Part shown: positions 7,260 to 16,198 of the stretch, piece after piece
Layout of the letters: the number at the start of each line of letters is the position of its first letter
Numbering within the stretch: the stretch's first letter is position 1
Source: Solirubrobacter phytolaccae
Lineage (GTDB): Bacteria; Actinomycetota; Thermoleophilia; Solirubrobacterales; Solirubrobacteraceae
Assembly (NCBI RefSeq): GCF_027587195.1
Contig: NZ_JAPDDP010000023.1
Coordinates: 1-64,000 of the forward strand
Reading direction: 5' to 3'
Length of the DNA: 64,000 nucleotides
The notes under the pieces: model-generated
Told to the model about the DNA's origin: nothing
What the model saw: only the letters and a program-made list of their open reading frames with translations
Database searches by the model: none
Program-made: the position numbers and the translations under genes

Positions 7260-8792
7260 GTGAAGTCATTCACCCTTGCGCTGCTTGCGGCAGCGCTCGT
7301 GGTCGTTCCGTCGAGCGCGCAGGCGCAGGAAGCGATCGACGGGCAGTACATCGTCGTGCTCAAGGCGAACGCGGGCACGGCGTCGGCGGATCGGGCGAAG
7401 ACGAAAGCGCGGGACCGCGGCGGGCGGATCCAGCGCGAGAGCTTCGGGCGGGTCCTCAACGGGTTCAGCGCCAAGCTCGACAGCAAGGCGCTCGCGGCCG
7501 TCAAGCAGGACGCGGCCGTGGACTTCGTCGAGCAGGACCGCGTGATCCGGCTCAGCGCGACGCAGACGAACGCGACGTGGGGGCTCGATCGCCTCGACCA
7601 GCGCGACCTGCCGCTCAGCACGACGTACTCGTACGGGAACCCGGGCGCGGGCGTGAAGGCGTACATCATCGACACCGGCATCCGGCTCACCCACGGTGAG
7701 TTCGCGAACGGGCGCGCGACGAGTGGCTACGACGCGATCGACGGCGGCTCGGCCGACGACTGCAACGGCCACGGCACGCACGTCGCGGGCACGGTCGGCG
7801 GTTCGCTCTACGGCGTGGCCAAGGGCGTGTCGCTCGTCGCCGTGCGCGTGCTCGACTGCAACGGGTCGGGCTCGACGTCGGGCGTGATTGCCGGCGTGAA
7901 CTGGGTCACCACCAACCATGCGGCCGGACAGGCCGCGGTCGCGAACATGAGCCTCGGCGGCGGCGTCTCGAGCGCGCTCGACACGGCGGTCCGCAACTCG
8001 ATCGCGGACGGCGTGACGTACGCGCTCGCGGCCGGCAACGAGAACACCAACGCGTGCAACTCCTCGCCGGCGCGCACGGCCGAGGCGATCACGGTCGGCG
8101 CGACGACGCGCACCGACGCGCGCGCCTCGTTCTCCAACTACGGCACGTGCGTGGACATCTTCGCGCCCGGCAACGGGATCACGTCCGCCTGGTACACGAG
8201 CAACACCGCCACGAACACGATCAGCGGCACGTCGATGGCCTCGCCGCACGTGGCGGGAGCGGCGGCCGTGTACCTGCAGGGCAACCCGGGCGCGAGCCCG
8301 GCGACCGTGGCGAGCTACCTGATCGCGCAGGCGACCACGGGCAAGGTCACGAGCCCGGGCAGCGGGTCGCCGAACCGGCTGCTGTACATCGCGCCGCCGG
8401 GCGGCGGGACCAACCCGACGCCGACACCGAGCCCGACGGTCACGCCGACGCCGACCAGCACGCCGACCCCGACCCCGAACCCGACGTGCGGGACCGAGAC
8501 CGAGTCGGGCAACCTCTCCGGCAGCGGCGCCTCGGCCGTCGTCCCGGGCGGCACCTACTACCAGTCGACCGCCTCCGGCACGCACCGCGCGTGCCTGACG
8601 GGACCGTCGAGCGCCGACTTCGACCTCTCGCTCAACAAGTGGAACGGGTCCACTTGGACGCGCGTGGCCAACTCCGAGGGGTCAACCTCGACCGAGCAGA
8701 TCAGCTATGCCGGCACGGCCGGTTACTACTACTGGCGCGTCACTTCCTGGCGTGGCAGTGGTGCGTTCACGCTGAGCTTCTCGCGCCCCTAG
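7260..8792 (+). CDS. Secreted subtilisin-like serine protease (S8, proteinase K/aqualysin type)
   Basis: This is a 510-residue preproenzyme. It has a signal peptide (about 1-22, ending AQA) and an I9 propeptide (about 28-100) that acts as folding chaperone and inhibitor. The catalytic domain has Asp138 (YIIDTGI), His171 (NGHGTHVAG), oxyanion-hole Asn260 (AAGNEN) and Ser325 (GTSMASPHVAG). A Thr-Pro-rich linker (about 384-409) leads to a C-terminal domain of about 100 residues beginning at a Cys, resembling bacterial pre-peptidase C-terminal (PPC) domains that help secretion or substrate binding and may be trimmed. All catalytic residues are present. GTG 7260 follows a good GGGAGG at 7249-7254. 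It stands alone and ends at a strong terminator. Confidence 0.95.
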   Translation: MKSFTLALLAAALVVVPSSAQAQEAIDGQYIVVLKANAGTASADRAKTKARDRGGRIQRESFGRVLNGFSAKLDSKALAAVKQDAAVDFVEQDRVIRLSATQTNATWGLDRLDQRDLPLSTTYSYGNPGAGVKAYIIDTGIRLTHGEFANGRATSGYDAIDGGSADDCNGHGTHVAGTVGGSLYGVAKGVSLVAVRVLDCNGSGSTSGVIAGVNWVTTNHAAGQAAVANMSLGGGVSSALDTAVRNSIADGVTYALAAGNENTNACNSSPARTAEAITVGATTRTDARASFSNYGTCVDIFAPGNGITSAWYTSNTATNTISGTSMASPHVAGAAAVYLQGNPGASPATVASYLIAQATTGKVTSPGSGSPNRLLYIAPPGGGTNPTPTPSPTVTPTPTSTPTPTPNPTCGTETESGNLSGSGASAVVPGGTYYQSTASGTHRACLTGPSSADFDLSLNKWNGSTWTRVANSEGSTSTEQISYAGTAGYYYWRVTSWRGSGAFTLSFSRP

Positions 8793-9340: not shown

Positions 9341-9359
9341 TCCGCTCGCGCGGGTGTAA

Positions 9360-9381
9360 CGGCTCGTTCACGAACGAGCCG
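9360..9381. repeat. Perfect 22-bp palindrome
   Basis: CGGCTCGTTC-AC-GAACGAGCCG has ten-base perfect arms. It lies 20 bp after the zinc-ribbon gene and 110 bp before the first giant secreted protein. There is no T-tract, so it is more likely an operator for the downstream pair than a terminator. The surrounding 9341-9491 has no ORF. Confidence 0.5.
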
Positions 9382-9491
9382 CGGCGAGCGGTCACAGTGG
9401 CGGACTAACTGGCGCGGCCCGTGGATGAGGGCCCGCCCGGTCGGTCATCTGCGCGCGCTCCGGTCTGGCGGCGCGTGAACAAGGAGTTCTC

Positions 9492-12400
9492 ATGCCCACG
9501 GTTTCTCGTCGATCCCGCGCGTCCTTGCGCGGCCGTCGCCGCACGCTCGCGGCCGGCGTCGTCGCCCTCACCGCGTTCCCGCCCGCCGCCGTCGCGGCCG
9601 GCCCGCTGACGGCGCTCGACACCACCGAGCCACTCGCGCCCGGCGTCACGCTGCGCACGCTCAAGCCGCTGCTCACGCCCGGCTGGGCGGACGCCAGCGT
9701 GCTGGAGGTGCGCATGGGGGAGAGCGGCGCGCGGCTGAAGTTCCTGACGTCGCCGACGGTCAGCTTCAAGCCGGTCGGCAACAGCACGACGCCGGGCGCG
9801 CTGGCCAAGGCCGCGGGCGCGGTCGGCGCGGTCAACGGCGACGCCTACGACAACGGCAACTCGTTCGCGCCCAACCACGCGCAGATCGCCGACGGCGTGC
9901 TGCGCGCCTCGGGTGATCCGAAGGAGACGCGGCCGTGGCCGGTCGCGGGCGTCACCGCGCAGGGGCTCGGCGCGATGCAGAGCCTGCTGTTCACCGGCAC
10001 GATCACGCGTACCGACGCCGCGGCGGCGGTCTCGACGCTGCCGCTCGCGGCGATCAACAACTACAGCGCCGCCAAGTCCGGCGACATCGAGGCGTTCACG
10101 GGGCTGTGGGGGAGCGAGACGCGCAACCGCACGGGCGGGAGCGGCATCGTCGAGGTCAAGGTCGTCGACGGCGTCGTGACGCAGGTCCGGAGCGGCACGC
10201 CGGGCAGCGGCGCGATCGCCGCGAACGAGCTCTACCTGGTCGGCCGCGAGGCGGGCGGGACCGCGCTCGCGCAGTTCAAGGAGGGCGACCGGGTGGCGCT
10301 CGACTACGCGCTCAAGACCGCGGCCGGCGGTGCCGCGCCGGACTTCGCGCAGGCGCTCGGCGGGCACGCGATCGTCGCGCCGCTGGTCACCGCCGGCGCC
10401 GTCACGGCGACCGACGACACGGCCGGCGCCGCCGCGCGCACCGCGATGGGCTTCTCGGCCGACGGGCGCACGGCCTTCCTCGCCGCCGTCCGCAACACGT
10501 CGCTGACCGACCTCGGCAGGCTGATGCGCGAGCTCGGCGCGTTCAACGCGATCAACCTCGGTGGCGGCGGCTCGACGACGCTCTCGGCGCGCTCTGCCGG
10601 CACGAACGACATGACGCTGCGAACGAGCAGCGAGCGCAACGAGAACGGCGCCGTCGGCGTGCTCACGGCCCCGGGCGACGGCTCGCTCGCGGCGCTCCTG
10701 GTCAAGTCGGCGCCGCGCGTGTTCGCGGGCGGCCGGCTGGCGCTGACCGCGACGCCCCTCGACGGCGCGTGGGGGAAGGCGACGCTGACCGACCCGGTGA
10801 CCTGGGCCACGAGCGGCGGCAGCGTCGACACGTCGGGCGTCCTGACGGCTCCGCTGACGCCGGGCAGCGTGTCCGTCACGGCCACCTCCGGCGGCGCGAC
10901 CGGCACCGCTGACGTGCAGGTGCTCGACGAGGTGCACTCGCTCACCGCGACGCCCACCACGCTCTCGTTCGCCGACAAGGACGCGTCGCCGTCCCCGATC
11001 GCGCTCGCCGGCAAGGACGCGGAGGGCTTCGACGCTCCGGTCGACGCCGCCGCCGCGACGCTCGAGTTCGACGAGGACATCATCGCCGCCACGGTGCAGG
11101 GCGACGGCCGGCTGCAGATCGCGCCGCGCGCGACCGGCTCGACCGTGCTCTGGATCACCGCCGGAGACGCGACCGCCGCCGTCGCCGTGCGGGTCGGCGA
11201 CGTGCCGCTGCCGACGGTCATCCCGGCCGCGGACCCGGCCGACCGGATGGTCTCGGTCGACGGCACGTCCACGCTCGCGCCGTGGAGCTTCGCGATGCTC
11301 TCCGGCCTGGGCGTCGCCGGTGCGGGCGACGACGCCGCGGCGCGCGCGGCGCGCTCGGTGCGTGCCGCCCGCGCGGCCGGCGTCGACTTCGTCCTGCTCT
11401 CCGACGTCACCGCGAGCGGCGCGACCGGGCAGGCCGCCGCGGCCGCGAGCGCCCTGATCGCAGCCGGCTGCGACCTCGCCACCGGCACGAGCCTCCCGGA
11501 CGGTGACGGCGTGCCGTGCGTGGCCGTGCCGGCGCCCGCCGACCGCGGCGCCGGCTCGCTCACCGAGTGGACCGCGAGCTTCGGGCCCGCCCACCGCACC
11601 TTCGACCACGACGGCGTCCGCTTCGTCCTGCTCGACTCCTCGGCCGCGACGCTGCGCGCGAACGCGGCCCAGCTCGCCGTCCTGCGCGAAGCGCTCACGG
11701 GCGCCGAGACGGACGCGTCCATCCGGGCCGTGGCCGTCATCACCACGCGTCCCACCACCGATCCGACGGGTGACGCGTCGCTCGGCCTGACCGACGCCAA
11801 CGAGCGCGCGATGCTCCAGAGCCTGCTGCAGCGCTTCCGCGCGGAGACGCACAAGGGTGTCGTGCTGATCGACGGCGAGGCGCGGATCGCGGGCGTCCGG
11901 CGTTCGGCCGGGCTGGCCGAGGTCGGCGTCCCGGCGGTCAACCGCGACCCGCGCGGCAGCGCCGACGCGGGCGGCTTCAACGGCTGGGCCCGGTTCGACG
12001 TGGACTCCGAGGCGTCGGACGCCGGCAGCGACTGGATCGGCGCGGACCTGCGTCCGGCGGGCACGAGCGTGGTCGTCGACGCGAGCGAGACGGTCGAGGT
12101 CGACGCGTCCGATCCGGTCTACGCCGACGCTCACGAAGGTGTCCGCACGATCCCGCTGCGCTACCCGGCCACGCCGCGCTGGTCTGGCTCGACCGGCCTC
12201 GCGATCGGCTCGGGGCCGGCGGCGCTGCGGGACGCGCGGGCGGCCGGCAAGCTCGCGCTGCTGGACCCGCGCACCGGGTTGCTGACCGGCCTGAAGGCGG
12301 GTGAGGTGACGATCGCCGCGACGATCGACGGCCGCAACGCCGACGCGCCGGTCACCGGGCAGGCGAAGGTGGAGATCGTCGCGGCCGAGGAGCCCGAGGT

Positions 12401-12875
12401 GGAGCCGACCCCGACGCCCACGCCCACGCCCACGCCGACCGCCACGGCGACGCCCACCGTGACCGCCACGCCGTCGCCGTCGGGGACGCCGTCCGCGACG
12501 GCCACGCCGCTGCCGCTCCCCGCGCCGACCGCGAGCCCGACGCCCGCACCGGCGGCGACGCGCACCACGTCGCTGTCGCCGCGGCTGAAGGCGACGCGCA
12601 CCGCGATCCAGCTGACGGTCTCCGTGCCGAAGGGCTCGATCGCCTCCGCGGCCGTGCAGCTGAAGGCGAAGCTGCGCTCGCGCACGGTCGTGGTCGGTCG
12701 CGGCAGCGTGACGCTCGGCAACGGCGCGACGAAGACGCTGTCGCTCAAGCTCAGCGCGGCCGCGCGGAAGGAGCTCAAGCGCGTGCGCAAGCTCAAGGTC
12801 ACGGTGGTGATCGCGGCACAGCGCGCCGACGGCAAGACGGTGACCACCACGAAGGCGATCACGGTGAAGGCGTGA
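9492..12875 (+). CDS. Giant secreted phosphodiester-glycosidase-like protein, copy 1
   Basis: This 1127-residue exported protein has a twin-Arg/basic signal peptide (about 1-36). A NAGPA-type phosphodiester glycosidase domain follows (about 60-395), with GAVNGDAYD near the start and AINLGGGGSTTLSA near the end. Two Ig/bacterial Big-like beta modules come next (about 410-590). A region of about 230 residues then looks like a degenerate calcineurin-type phosphoesterase (WSFAMLSGLGV, VDFVLLSDV, FGPAHRTFDHDGVRFVLLD). A Thr-Pro repeat linker (about 970-1015) and a Lys-rich C-terminal beta domain complete it. NAGPA domains cleave sugar-phosphodiester bonds, so cell-surface polymers such as teichoic acids are possible targets; this is inference. 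AAGGAG sits 6 nt before ATG. It overlaps copy 2 by GTGA. Confidence 0.8.
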   Translation: MPTVSRRSRASLRGRRRTLAAGVVALTAFPPAAVAAGPLTALDTTEPLAPGVTLRTLKPLLTPGWADASVLEVRMGESGARLKFLTSPTVSFKPVGNSTTPGALAKAAGAVGAVNGDAYDNGNSFAPNHAQIADGVLRASGDPKETRPWPVAGVTAQGLGAMQSLLFTGTITRTDAAAAVSTLPLAAINNYSAAKSGDIEAFTGLWGSETRNRTGGSGIVEVKVVDGVVTQVRSGTPGSGAIAANELYLVGREAGGTALAQFKEGDRVALDYALKTAAGGAAPDFAQALGGHAIVAPLVTAGAVTATDDTAGAAARTAMGFSADGRTAFLAAVRNTSLTDLGRLMRELGAFNAINLGGGGSTTLSARSAGTNDMTLRTSSERNENGAVGVLTAPGDGSLAALLVKSAPRVFAGGRLALTATPLDGAWGKATLTDPVTWATSGGSVDTSGVLTAPLTPGSVSVTATSGGATGTADVQVLDEVHSLTATPTTLSFADKDASPSPIALAGKDAEGFDAPVDAAAATLEFDEDIIAATVQGDGRLQIAPRATGSTVLWITAGDATAAVAVRVGDVPLPTVIPAADPADRMVSVDGTSTLAPWSFAMLSGLGVAGAGDDAAARAARSVRAARAAGVDFVLLSDVTASGATGQAAAAASALIAAGCDLATGTSLPDGDGVPCVAVPAPADRGAGSLTEWTASFGPAHRTFDHDGVRFVLLDSSAATLRANAAQLAVLREALTGAETDASIRAVAVITTRPTTDPTGDASLGLTDANERAMLQSLLQRFRAETHKGVVLIDGEARIAGVRRSAGLAEVGVPAVNRDPRGSADAGGFNGWARFDVDSEASDAGSDWIGADLRPAGTSVVVDASETVEVDASDPVYADAHEGVRTIPLRYPATPRWSGSTGLAIGSGPAALRDARAAGKLALLDPRTGLLTGLKAGEVTIAATIDGRNADAPVTGQAKVEIVAAEEPEVEPTPTPTPTPTPTATATPTVTATPSPSGTPSATATPLPLPAPTASPTPAPAATRTTSLSPRLKATRTAIQLTVSVPKGSIASAAVQLKAKLRSRTVVVGRGSVTLGNGATKTLSLKLSAAARKELKRVRKLKVTVVIAAQRADGKTVTTTKAITVKA

Positions 12876-15800
12876 GGCGCGCGCTGCTGACGGCGGCGGC
12901 GGTGGTCGCCGCCGTCGCCGTCGGCCCGGCCGTGCCGTCGGCGCGGGCGCAGGTCCTCCCGGCGCTCGACACGAGCGAGCAGGTCGGTCCCGACATCACG
13001 TTGCGGCACCTGCAGTACCCGGCCGCGGGCGGCTGGGTCGACGCGTACGTGCTCCGCGCCGACCTCGCGCGTCCGGACGTCAAGCTCGACCTGCTGCACC
13101 CGCCGGTGATCGCGCAGGGCCAGGTGCTGAGCGAGCAGGCCAAGAGCGCGGGCGCGATGGCCGGCGTGAACGCCGACTTCTTCGACATCAACAACTCGTA
13201 CGCGTCGCAGGGCTTCGAGGTCAAGGACGGGGCGCTGCGCAAGACGTCCACGCCGGCCGCCGCGGGCAGCCTGGCGTCGGTGATCACGACGGCCGGCAAG
13301 GCGCTGCAGACGCAGCTGGCGTTCGCCGGGTCGATCACCGCGAACGGCGGCACGCTCGCCTCGCTGGCCGGCGTCAACACCTACGCGACGACCGCCGACG
13401 GCATCGTCCAGTTCACCCCGCAGTGGGGCACCTACTCCCGCGCGCGGCCGACGAGCGGCGCGAGCAGCACCGCCGAGGTGCTCGTGCGCGCCGGCAAGGT
13501 CGTGTCCGTGAGCACCACCACGCCCGGCGCGGGCGCGATTCCGGCCGACGGTTTCTACCTGGTCGGGCGGGGCGCGGGCGCGACAAGCCTCGCCTCACTG
13601 CAGGTCGGCGACGCGGTGTCCGTGACCGCGGGCGTCACCACCGCCGGCGGTGAAAGCGTGCGCCTCGCGGTCAGCGGCGGCGCCGCGATCCTGCGCGACG
13701 GCATCGTCCAAACGGTCCCGTCCGACGCGTTCGGCGACCCGCTGAACCCGAACCCGCGCACGGCGATCGGGTTCGACCGCGACGCGACGCACGTGTACCT
13801 CGCCGTGGTCGACGGCCGCCGCTCCGGCTTCCCGGGCATCTCCCAGAGCCAACTCGGCGCGCTGCTCGCCGCGTCCGGAGCGTGGAACGCGCAGAACCTC
13901 GACGGCGGCGGCTCCTCCGAGCTGCTGGCCCGAGCGGCCGGACAGGCCACGCCCGCGATCCGCAACGTCCCGTCGGACGGCCGCGAGCGCACGGACGCCA
14001 ACGGCATCGGGCTGATCGTCACGCCCGGCGACGGCACCGCCCGCACGCTGCTGCTCGACCCGGACGGCGACGCCGCCCGCTCCGGCGGCACAGTCGCGCG
14101 CGTGTTCCCGGGCGCCCGCCTGCGCCTCCGCCTTGCGACGGCGGTCGACGCGGGCTGGGCGCCGGCGCCGCTGCCCGCCTCGGTGAGCTGGTCGACGACG
14201 CGCGGCACGATCGACGCCGACGGCCGCCTGACCGCGCCGGCCACCCCTGGCGGGCTGACGGTGACGGCGACGGGCGCGACGGCCACCGGCACGTCGAGCG
14301 TGCGCGTGCTCGGGCCACTCGCCACGATCACGCCCGCGCAGGCCGCCGTCGCGTTCGCCGGCACGACCGCGCGGGCCACGAACATCCCGCTCACCGGACG
14401 CGACGCGCAGGGGTTCTCGGGCCCACTCGACGCGGCTGACACGACCCTCTCGTTCGACGCGGCCGTGATCAGCGCGACGGCCGCGAGCGACGGGTCGGTG
14501 CGGATCGCTCCGCGGGCGGTCGGGGCGACGCTGCTGCGGATCCGCTCCGGGAACGTCGCGAGCGAGCTCACGGTCACCGTCGGCGCGGCGAGCCCGCCCG
14601 CGCTCGAGCTGCCGCCCACGCCCGATCCGCTCGTCGCGAGCCAGGGCGACGGCGCGCAGCCGTGGACGTTCGCGGCGCTCGCCAACCCTGGCATCGCGAC
14701 AGCGGACGACGCGGGCGCCGACGCGACGGTCGCCGCGCTCACCCGTGCCCGTGCCGGCGGCGCGGACTTCGTGCTCGTCGGCGGCGGCGTGACCTCCGCG
14801 GGCGAGGACGGCCAGACGACCGCAGCGGCCGAAGCGCTCACGCGCGGCGGCTGCGTCCTCGTCACCGGCTCGACCCTCCCCGCCGCCCCGGCCGGCAAGG
14901 TGCCGTGCGTCGTCACGCCCGGCGGCGCGGACGGCGGCAGCTTCACCACGACGTTCGGTCCCGCCCGTCGCACGTTCGACCATCACGGGACGAGGTTCGT
15001 GCTGTTGGACTCCGCGAGCGGCACGCTGCTCGACGCCGGCGCCACGCAGGTCACGGCGCTCGCCACCGCCCTCGACGACGCAGCCGCGAACCCGGCCGTC
15101 GACGGGGTGGTCGTGGCGTCCTACCGCCCGGTCACCGACGCGCTCGGCGACGCCGCGCGGGCGCTCACCGACCCGCGCGAGGGCGTGCTGCTCGAGCAGG
15201 CGCTCGCCGGCTTCGCGGAGCGCTCCGGCAAGCCGGTCGCGTTGCTCACCGCGGGCTCGCGCCTCGCCGAGGTGCGGCGTGTCGAGGGGGTTGCCGAGCT
15301 GTCGCTGCCGCCGCTGACCGCCCCGCGGGGCAACGCCGCGCGCGGCGGGTTCACGGGGTGGACGCGCCTGACGGCCGGCCCGCGCGGGCTGGTCGCCGAC
15401 GTGCACGCGCTCGCGGACACGATCGAGCTGTCCGTGCCCGCCACGCTCGCGACCGGCGCTTCCACGGCCGTCGCGGCGACGCTCACGCAGGCCACGCGCC
15501 GTGTGCCCGCCCGCTTCCCGCTCTCCCCGCGCTGGTCGGGCTCCGGGCTGGTGATCGGCGCGGACGTCGAAGCGGCGCGAGCCCTCGGCGCGGTGGCGAT
15601 CCTCGACCCCGCGACGCGCACGCTGACCGGGCTGAAGGCCGGCACGGTGACCGTCGCTGTGGACGCCGACGGCGCTCACGCGGAGCAGGCCGTGCAGGTC
15701 ACCGCCGCGCCCGTGGAGCAGGAGCCGGACCCGGAGCCGACGCCGGCCCCGCCGGGCACCGAGGCGCCGGTCGTGGTTCCGGCACCGCCCGGACCGCCGC

Positions 15801-16153
15801 TCCAGCCCATGCCCATCCGTATGCCGAGCAACGTCATCCGCGTGCTCTCGGCCGCGGGCTCGTCGACCGCGCTGACGTTCAAGGTCAGCGTGCCGGGCGC
15901 GGGCCGCCTGGTCGTCAGCGCGAAGGCGACGCCGAAGGGCCGCAAGGCCGTCACGGTCGGCTCGCACACCACGACCGCCCGCTCGGCCGGCACGGTGAAG
16001 GTCACGCTCAAGCTGTCGGCGCGCACGCGCGCGGCGATCGCCAAGGGCCGCTCGCACAAGGCGACGGTGAAGGCGACGCTGCGCTTCACGCCCACGGGCG
16101 GCAGCGCACGCACCGTCACGCGCAGCTTCGGCGTGACGGTCCGCGGACACTAG
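12872..16153 (+). CDS. Giant secreted phosphodiester-glycosidase-like protein, copy 2
   Basis: This 1093-residue paralogue of the preceding gene has the same domain order. The signal peptide (about 1-26, ending ARAQ) is followed by the NAGPA-like domain (MAGVNADFFDIN near residue 105; AQNLDGGGSSELLA near 350), Ig-like modules and the phosphoesterase-like region (TFGPARRTFDHHGTRFVLLD, DGVVVASYRPVTD). It then has Lys/Arg-free AP-rich linkers and a basic C-terminal beta domain. This copy keeps NADFFD and NLDGGGSS, the family's more canonical forms, whereas copy 1 has NGDAYD and NLGGGGST, so copy 2 is the likelier active enzyme. GTG 12872 overlaps the upstream TGA. The pair is an old tandem duplication, as the sequences differ throughout. 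Confidence 0.8.
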   Translation: MRRALLTAAAVVAAVAVGPAVPSARAQVLPALDTSEQVGPDITLRHLQYPAAGGWVDAYVLRADLARPDVKLDLLHPPVIAQGQVLSEQAKSAGAMAGVNADFFDINNSYASQGFEVKDGALRKTSTPAAAGSLASVITTAGKALQTQLAFAGSITANGGTLASLAGVNTYATTADGIVQFTPQWGTYSRARPTSGASSTAEVLVRAGKVVSVSTTTPGAGAIPADGFYLVGRGAGATSLASLQVGDAVSVTAGVTTAGGESVRLAVSGGAAILRDGIVQTVPSDAFGDPLNPNPRTAIGFDRDATHVYLAVVDGRRSGFPGISQSQLGALLAASGAWNAQNLDGGGSSELLARAAGQATPAIRNVPSDGRERTDANGIGLIVTPGDGTARTLLLDPDGDAARSGGTVARVFPGARLRLRLATAVDAGWAPAPLPASVSWSTTRGTIDADGRLTAPATPGGLTVTATGATATGTSSVRVLGPLATITPAQAAVAFAGTTARATNIPLTGRDAQGFSGPLDAADTTLSFDAAVISATAASDGSVRIAPRAVGATLLRIRSGNVASELTVTVGAASPPALELPPTPDPLVASQGDGAQPWTFAALANPGIATADDAGADATVAALTRARAGGADFVLVGGGVTSAGEDGQTTAAAEALTRGGCVLVTGSTLPAAPAGKVPCVVTPGGADGGSFTTTFGPARRTFDHHGTRFVLLDSASGTLLDAGATQVTALATALDDAAANPAVDGVVVASYRPVTDALGDAARALTDPREGVLLEQALAGFAERSGKPVALLTAGSRLAEVRRVEGVAELSLPPLTAPRGNAARGGFTGWTRLTAGPRGLVADVHALADTIELSVPATLATGASTAVAATLTQATRRVPARFPLSPRWSGSGLVIGADVEAARALGAVAILDPATRTLTGLKAGTVTVAVDADGAHAEQAVQVTAAPVEQEPDPEPTPAPPGTEAPVVVPAPPGPPLQPMPIRMPSNVIRVLSAAGSSTALTFKVSVPGAGRLVVSAKATPKGRKAVTVGSHTTTARSAGTVKVTLKLSARTRAAIAKGRSHKATVKATLRFTPTGGSARTVTRSFGVTVRGH

Positions 16154-16163
16154 GCGGAGAACA

Positions 16164-16190
16164 CCCGGGGCGGCGCGCAGCCGCCCCGGG
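16164..16190. terminator. Bidirectional hairpin between convergent genes
   Basis: An 11-bp perfect GC stem (CCCGGGGCGGC with GCCGCCCCGGG) encloses a 5-nt loop. It lies in the 45-bp gap between the glycosidase-like gene and the convergent phosphorylase gene. No T-tract follows on either side. Confidence 0.65.
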
Positions 16191-16198
16191 GGACCGGC

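What the first reader, a model, noticed from the sequence alone, without database searches (positions are those of the whole stretch)
9492..16153. Tandem giant secreted phosphodiester-glycosidase-like proteins
Two 1.1-kilo-residue paralogues with the same multi-domain order overlap by GTGA. Each joins a NAGPA-type domain to Ig-like modules and a phosphoesterase-like region lacking obvious metal ligands. Copy 1 has changed canonical residues (NGDAYD for NADFFD; NLGGGGST for NLDGGGSS), so one active and one inactive partner may work together on a surface polymer. A perfect 22-bp palindrome lies upstream.
Basis: partly seen in the sequence, partly recalled or inferred. Interest (0 to 1): 0.5.

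Follow-up and report, generated by a model that had tools for sequence, protein, structure and literature searches.

The report
Coupled enzyme and pseudoenzyme surface proteins
Two overlapping genes in a soil actinobacterium encode giant, probably secreted proteins, one keeping the signature of a sugar-phosphate-cleaving enzyme and the other with that site rebuilt, and a bacterium of another genus carries the same mismatched pair, which suggests that the two work together.

Summary
[quoted passage not shown] Other members of the family mostly keep both active sites (NAGPA set in 108 of 112 rows, metal set in 105 of 112). In the window pair both phosphoesterase domains have lost the metal site, and both proteins lack a module of about 130 residues. 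Copy 2 keeps the NAGPA set. Copy 1 has lost the Asp of NLDGGGS, the FF of NxDFFD and the PSDG loop. Conexibacter sp. CPCC 205762 carries the same tandem pair, with a 4-base overlap and the same asymmetry, at 57-59% identity. Copy 1's NAGPA columns are held between the genera as well as copy 2's (68/76 and 71/83). This fits a maintained enzyme/pseudoenzyme pair better than decay. Against it: the pair was found in 2 of 201 related genomes, its site is empty in four of five congeners read, and neither activity nor interaction was tested. The "perfect palindrome" is two 10-bp arms around AC and no rarer than chance.

The parts
9492..12875 (+). Copy 1 (1127 aa): pseudo-NAGPA domain, two Ig-like domains, metal-less calcineurin-like domain, C-terminal Ig-like domain, Pro/Thr-rich linker, C-terminal beta domain; N-terminal signal peptide by eye
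12872..16153 (+). Copy 2 (1093 aa), same order, NAGPA residue set intact; overlaps copy 1 by GTGA
9606..10685 (+). Copy 1 NAGPA-type domain (about residues 39-398)
   Evidence: Z 25.1 to 3ohg, 22.1 to 6pku
9834..9851 (+). NGDAYD in place of the family's N(A/G)DFFD
10554..10577 (+). NLGGGGST in place of NLDGGGST
11271..12041 (+). Copy 1 calcineurin-like domain without metal ligands (about residues 594-850)
12962..14038 (+). Copy 2 NAGPA domain (about residues 31-389)
   Evidence: Z 28.8 to 3ohg, 24.7 to 6pku
13169..13186 (+). NADFFD, intact
13895..13918 (+). NLDGGGSS, intact
14651..15421 (+). Copy 2 calcineurin-like domain without metal ligands (about residues 594-850)
15833..16141 (+). Copy 2 C-terminal beta domain, also found at the end of other proteins of the group
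9360..9381 (.). Inverted repeat, 10-bp arms around AC; not shown to belong to the system

Best explanation
The two genes are a maintained, translationally coupled enzyme/pseudoenzyme pair derived from the secreted NAGPA-Ig-calcineurin family. An ancestor lost the phosphoesterase metal site and a module of about 130 residues and was duplicated in tandem. Copy 2 stayed a competent phosphodiester glycosidase that takes sugars off sugar-1-phosphate diesters of a surface or environmental polymer. Copy 1's glycosidase pocket was rebuilt into a fixed non-canonical site that most likely binds the same kind of ligand without hydrolysing it, and the dead phosphoesterase domains serve as scaffold. Shown from sequence: the anatomy, the losses, the recurrence of the asymmetry, and constraint on copy 1's altered domain. 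Inferred: secretion, activity of copy 2, inactivity of copy 1, partnership and substrate.
For: Same pair, same order, 4-base overlap and same motif states in Conexibacter sp. CPCC 205762; copy 1 orthologues 59% and copy 2 orthologues 57% identical, copies 40-45% to each other. NAGPA-Ig tree: copy 1s together 100, copy 2s together 99, all four together 98 (SH-aLRT). Family-conserved NAGPA columns agree between genera in 68 of 76 for copy 1 and 71 of 83 for copy 2, against 146 of 257 and 158 of 264 in variable columns (Fisher 5e-8 and 9e-6); where both copy 1s left the family letter, 14 columns share the new one and 4 differ. Stretches around the former site are the best conserved of copy 1. The Asp lost in copy 1 is present in all five solved NAGPA-type chains printed. 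Both folds are retained in both copies.
Against: Pair seen only in 2 of 201 related genomes and, among 299 genomes drawn from the class, only in the window's own. Clean absence from the site in four of five congeners read. Tandem arrays of intact members are frequent in the family, so tandem order alone proves little. Copy 1 keeps other signature residues (N115, D117, D120, R316, N355, S361), so it may still be an enzyme. Copy 2 has E350 where 112 relatives nearly always have T. In the phosphoesterase tree the two copy-wise pairs are not significantly supported within the clade of four. Only two genomes inform the constraint test. No interaction evidence.
Confidence: 0.5

Rival explanations
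1. Copy 1 is not dead but a re-specialised enzyme: its changed pocket (AY for FF, Gly for Asp, loop lost) gives another substrate or chemistry, and the two enzymes act in series or on two polymers.
For: Its family-conserved columns are as constrained as copy 2's; six other signature residues remain.
Against: The Asp of NLDGGGS is lost, which all five solved chains printed and the intact relatives keep; the PSDG loop is gone.
Confidence: 0.22
2. Both proteins are mainly adhesins or structural wall proteins; the NAGPA and calcineurin folds are binding modules and any catalysis is incidental.
For: Ig-like domains, low-complexity linkers and metal-less calcineurin domains; another giant protein with a choice-of-anchor domain occupies the same site in congener G001.
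Against: Copy 2 keeps the whole NAGPA set in both genera, which pure adhesion would not need.
Confidence: 0.15
3. The pair is a decaying duplicate without present function.
For: Phosphoesterase ligand positions drift between the genera; partial ligand loss also in 4 untruncated rows of the 112; sparse distribution.
Against: No stop codon inside either ORF in either genome at 57-59% identity; conserved columns held.
Confidence: 0.07

Closest known systems
NAGPA / DUF2233 phosphodiester glycosidases (PF09992): vertebrate mannose-6-phosphate uncovering enzyme; bacterial 3ohg, 6ozd, 5h3k
   Same: Fold (Z 20-37 in both copies), Pfam match, and in copy 2 the conserved residues
   Different: Copy 1 lacks the conserved Asp, FF and PSDG loop; both are fused to Ig-like and metal-less calcineurin-like domains
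Actinobacterial secreted NAGPA-Ig-metallophosphoesterase proteins (Solirubrobacterales, Streptomyces, Glycomyces, Kribbella)
   Same: Direct homologues over nearly the whole length
   Different: They keep both active sites in most rows and carry a further module of about 130 residues
ShfP (YvnB) and its radiation of surface calcineurin-like phosphoesterases, some fused to NAGPA (PMC11488536: outline with abstract and section 7 read)
   Same: Large secreted proteins with Ig domains and a calcineurin-like domain; NAGPA fusions are mentioned there
   Different: The phosphoesterase is the working part of ShfP; here it has no metal site; no lamin-tail domain was seen
TelC/NAGPA two-enzyme surface proteins of Bacillota (PMC12419801: passages only)
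   Same: NAGPA joined to variable Ig-like modules on a large surface protein
   Different: Other partner enzyme; no enzyme/pseudoenzyme pair described in the passages seen

Membership tests
NAGPA phosphodiester glycosidase (PF09992) | Profile match above the curated cut-off | tested here: met
   62.2 and 98.9 bits, cut-off 25
NAGPA phosphodiester glycosidase (PF09992) | Fold of solved NAGPA proteins | tested here: met
   Z 25.1 and 28.8 to 3ohg, copies 1 and 2
NAGPA phosphodiester glycosidase (PF09992) | Conserved residue set, copy 2 | tested here: met
   N,D,D,R,N,D,S,D all present
NAGPA phosphodiester glycosidase (PF09992) | Conserved residue set, copy 1 | tested here: not met
   Asp of NLDGGGS and Asp of PSDG lost; FF is AY. 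Copy 1 is filed as a homologue, not as a functional member
NAGPA phosphodiester glycosidase (PF09992) | Hydrolysis of sugar-1-phosphate diesters | not testable with these tools
   needs an assay
Calcineurin-like metallophosphoesterase (PF00149) | Fold | tested here: met
   Z 25.3 and 23.8 to GpdQ
Calcineurin-like metallophosphoesterase (PF00149) | Profile match | tested here: not met
   No PF00149 match at E up to 1 in either copy; present in 4 of 4 canonical relatives scanned
Calcineurin-like metallophosphoesterase (PF00149) | Metal ligands D, D/D, N-H, H, H | tested here: not met
   Set lost in both copies in both genera
ShfP-type surface phosphoesterases | Lamin-tail domain and live calcineurin domain | tested here: not met
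   No metal ligands; no lamin-tail match in Pfam at E up to 1
Enzyme/pseudoenzyme pair | Conserved coupling of one intact and one altered paralogue | tested here: met
   Two genera
Enzyme/pseudoenzyme pair | Physical or functional partnership | not testable with these tools
   no complex prediction or assay available

The most novel reading that the evidence does not exclude
A two-protein surface machine made from one bifunctional enzyme: copy 1, non-catalytic in both of its enzyme domains but with a rebuilt and conserved sugar-phosphate pocket, is a lectin-like sensor or activator for the glycosidase copy 2, with the dead phosphoesterase domains forming the interface, so that a two-step degrader of phosphopolymers became a recognition-controlled one-step enzyme.
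Probability: 0.25. Interest if true: 0.6.

Novelty: new variant of a known kind. Interest (0 to 1): 0.42.

Why it matters
Little seems to be known of what bacterial NAGPA domains act on (papers seen). A natural pair that fixes one intact and one rebuilt version of the site, with the neighbouring phosphoesterase switched off, separates binding from hydrolysis and offers a clean test of what the domain recognises. It would also be an extracellular bacterial example of a pseudoenzyme partnership.

Tried and rejected
Palindrome as operator: one exact place in the genome and none in the six other genus genomes searched, at zero mismatches; nothing alike seen by eye in L069 4200-4560 upstream of the Conexibacter pair; frequency of its class as by chance. 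Not used as evidence.

dN/dS: computed, but third-position GC of 0.95-0.97 makes synonymous distance unreliable; used only for open frames and identity by domain.

Larger operon in Conexibacter: the 1025-aa ORF after the pair (L069 11326-14403) is an Arg-rich frame opposite a GerE/AAA regulator gene on the other strand, so not part of the unit.

Plasmid carriage: 2 of 72,556 records with distant matches of 31.7-31.9%. No transposase or integrase was sought.

The missing module: Pfam gave nothing above a cut-off and the single-sequence PDB search nothing; the family profile matched flagellar outer layer protein FlaA weakly (E 5e-4). A carbohydrate-binding nature is a lead only.

Literature: the DUF2233 structure paper (10.1074/jbc.M112.434977) is not held and is known here from reference lists. 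Searches that could have shown such a pair listed none; they cover open-licence PMC papers, of which I saw listings. GAP50, a calcineurin-fold anchor protein (title), was looked up as an analogue (listing only) and not used.

Rows: the 112 comparison rows include one place held twice (L034 and L070) and near-identical rows (L043/L044, L040/L048), so they are not independent. Cut rows: L163 5497-8382 and L164 end with their contigs; L162 8071-12000 is cut by the stretch I fetched; L130 breaks off inside its locus. One search kept 80 of 118 loci. The NAGPA tree used 46 of 116 rows, the phosphoesterase tree 44; both left out L044, L048 and L162 8071-12000, the second also L163 5497-8382 and L164. 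Genome searches score only the best few candidates of each genome. Scripts printed no result (wrong pattern; too few files read) and were redone.

Full report
What is there. Two ORFs, 9492-12875 and 12872-16153, overlap by GTGA. Both match Pfam NAGPA, copy 1 at E 9.3e-17 and copy 2 at 4.7e-28. Hydrophobic N-termini were read by eye as signal peptides; no predictor was run. The AlphaFold2 models are confident (mean pLDDT 88.3 for copy 2; 85.5 for copy 1). Comparison with solved structures gives, for copies 2 and 1, an NAGPA domain (Z 28.8 and 25.1 to 3ohg; 24.7 and 22.1 to guinea-pig NAGPA 6pku) and a calcineurin-like domain (Z 25.3 and 23.8 to glycerophosphodiesterase GpdQ).

The family. A search of 101 genomes showed five full-length members in the window's own genome: this pair, one on C86 and two in tandem on C146. 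A scan of a genome collection found the same kind of protein in Streptomyces, Glycomyces, Kribbella, Actinoalloteichus and Phytoactinopolyspora. The window's genus is taken as Solirubrobacter because G004:C653 has the length (33,669) of the S. taibaiensis record JAPDDQ010000066.1 and the same kind of match; that is an inference. Four of four canonical relatives scanned carry PF00149 Metallophos besides NAGPA. Of 112 comparison rows, 108 hold the NAGPA set and 105 the metal set. The NAGPA exceptions are L081 and L098 (one N is E), L165 1663-6201 (one D is G) and a cut row. The metal exceptions are three cut or broken rows and four with changed ligands (L032 5736-9371 in the window's own genome; Streptomyces L080, L106, L145), all four of which keep the NAGPA set.

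What is odd about the pair. Both copies lost the metal set and a block of about 130 residues that precedes the phosphoesterase in relatives. Copy 2 keeps every residue of the NAGPA set; copy 1 reads NGDAYD and NLGGGGST and lacks the PSDG loop. The Asp that copy 1 lost is present in all five solved chains printed, which include the Xenopus and guinea-pig enzymes. The Gly of NGD is ordinary in this family. Which of these residues are catalytic was not read in any paper here.

The pair elsewhere. Conexibacter sp. CPCC 205762 (L069, the same genome as G118) holds both genes in tandem, overlapping at 7905-7908. The copy 1 proteins are 59% and the copy 2 proteins 57% identical, the two copies of one genome 40-45%. 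Motif states match copy by copy. In the NAGPA-Ig tree the copy 1s (100), the copy 2s (99) and all four (98) form supported groups (SH-aLRT). The phosphoesterase tree also unites the four (100) but does not significantly support the copy-wise pairs within them. The simplest history is loss of the metal site and duplication before the two lineages parted, or transfer of a ready-made pair. In 201 related genomes 22 had a match at E up to 1e-30 and two of them, G000 and G118, the pair. Among 299 genomes of the class 12 had a match, and only G000 the pair; G118 is not among those 12 and so was evidently not drawn.

Constraint. In the NAGPA domain the columns that the family conserves agree between the genera in 68 of 76 for copy 1 and 71 of 83 for copy 2, against 146 of 257 and 158 of 264 in variable columns. 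Where both copy 1 proteins left the family letter, 14 columns share the new letter and 4 differ. The stretches around the former site are the best conserved of copy 1 (74% at residues 101-150, 70% at 351-400). In the phosphoesterase the contrast is weaker (50 of 66 and 49 of 66, against 112 of 189 and 97 of 182), new letters differ about as often as they agree (14 same and 10 different in copy 1; 9 and 11 in copy 2), and several ligand positions differ between the genera. Reading: copy 1's pocket was rebuilt and is held; the metal sites were given up while the fold was kept. Shared descent raises agreement everywhere, hence the comparison with variable columns of the same proteins. Two genomes are a thin basis.

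Surroundings. The pair lies between a small gene for a zinc-ribbon-like protein (only sub-threshold Pfam matches) and a converging gene with DUF3417 and phosphorylase matches. In G002, G003, G004 and G005 these neighbours adjoin with no room for the pair; in G001 a different ORF of 1744 aa, with a choice-of-anchor I match above the cut-off and weaker propeller matches below theirs, fills the place. G006 was not read there. So the pair entered, or was cleanly lost from, a site that also takes another giant surface protein. Other neighbours (subtilase, ArsC-type, O6-methylguanine methyltransferase) suggest no pathway. G+C is 76.3% for the pair and 72.5% for the window.

Mechanism. In intact members two steps are plausible on one chain: NAGPA takes the sugar off a sugar-1-phosphate diester and the phosphoesterase handles the phosphate (inference from the two families). 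In B. subtilis the secreted calcineurin-like protein ShfP is needed to release glycerol, and NAGPA fusions of that radiation are on record (PMC11488536, abstract and section 7). The window pair has given up the second step. Overlapping genes should give matched amounts; copy 2 would hydrolyse and copy 1 bind. That they touch each other is unproven. I put 0.5 on this model, 0.22 on a re-specialised enzyme, 0.15 on adhesins and 0.07 on decay.

Verdict. The anatomy is solid. The conserved asymmetry is unexpected and testable. It is a new variant within a known family, not a new kind of system.

Noticed in passing
L175 11709-16937 (-) in G001; same intergenic site as window 9341-16198: A different giant ORF (1744 aa, choice-of-anchor I match) sits at the place that holds the pair in the window and is empty in four other congeners, so the site may be a hotspot for surface-protein genes.
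   Followed up: partly
window 15833-16141 (copy 2 residues about 988-1090); other places, such as G000:C154:5086-5484: The C-terminal beta domain matches the ends of otherwise different proteins of about 450-1200 aa in many related genomes; it may be a shared anchoring or secretion module of Solirubrobacterales.
   Followed up: no
L032 5736-9371 (-) beside 9432-13187 (-), window genome C146: A second tandem pair in the same genome, in which one member keeps all metal ligands and the other has GDRE for GNHE.
   Followed up: partly
L080, L106, L145 (Streptomyces): Phosphoesterase ligands partly lost with the NAGPA set kept: the phosphoesterase seems the more dispensable half of the family.
   Followed up: partly
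window 7260-8792: A subtilase with an I9 propeptide domain upstream of the pair; also found near the zinc-ribbon gene in three of five congeners read.
   Followed up: no
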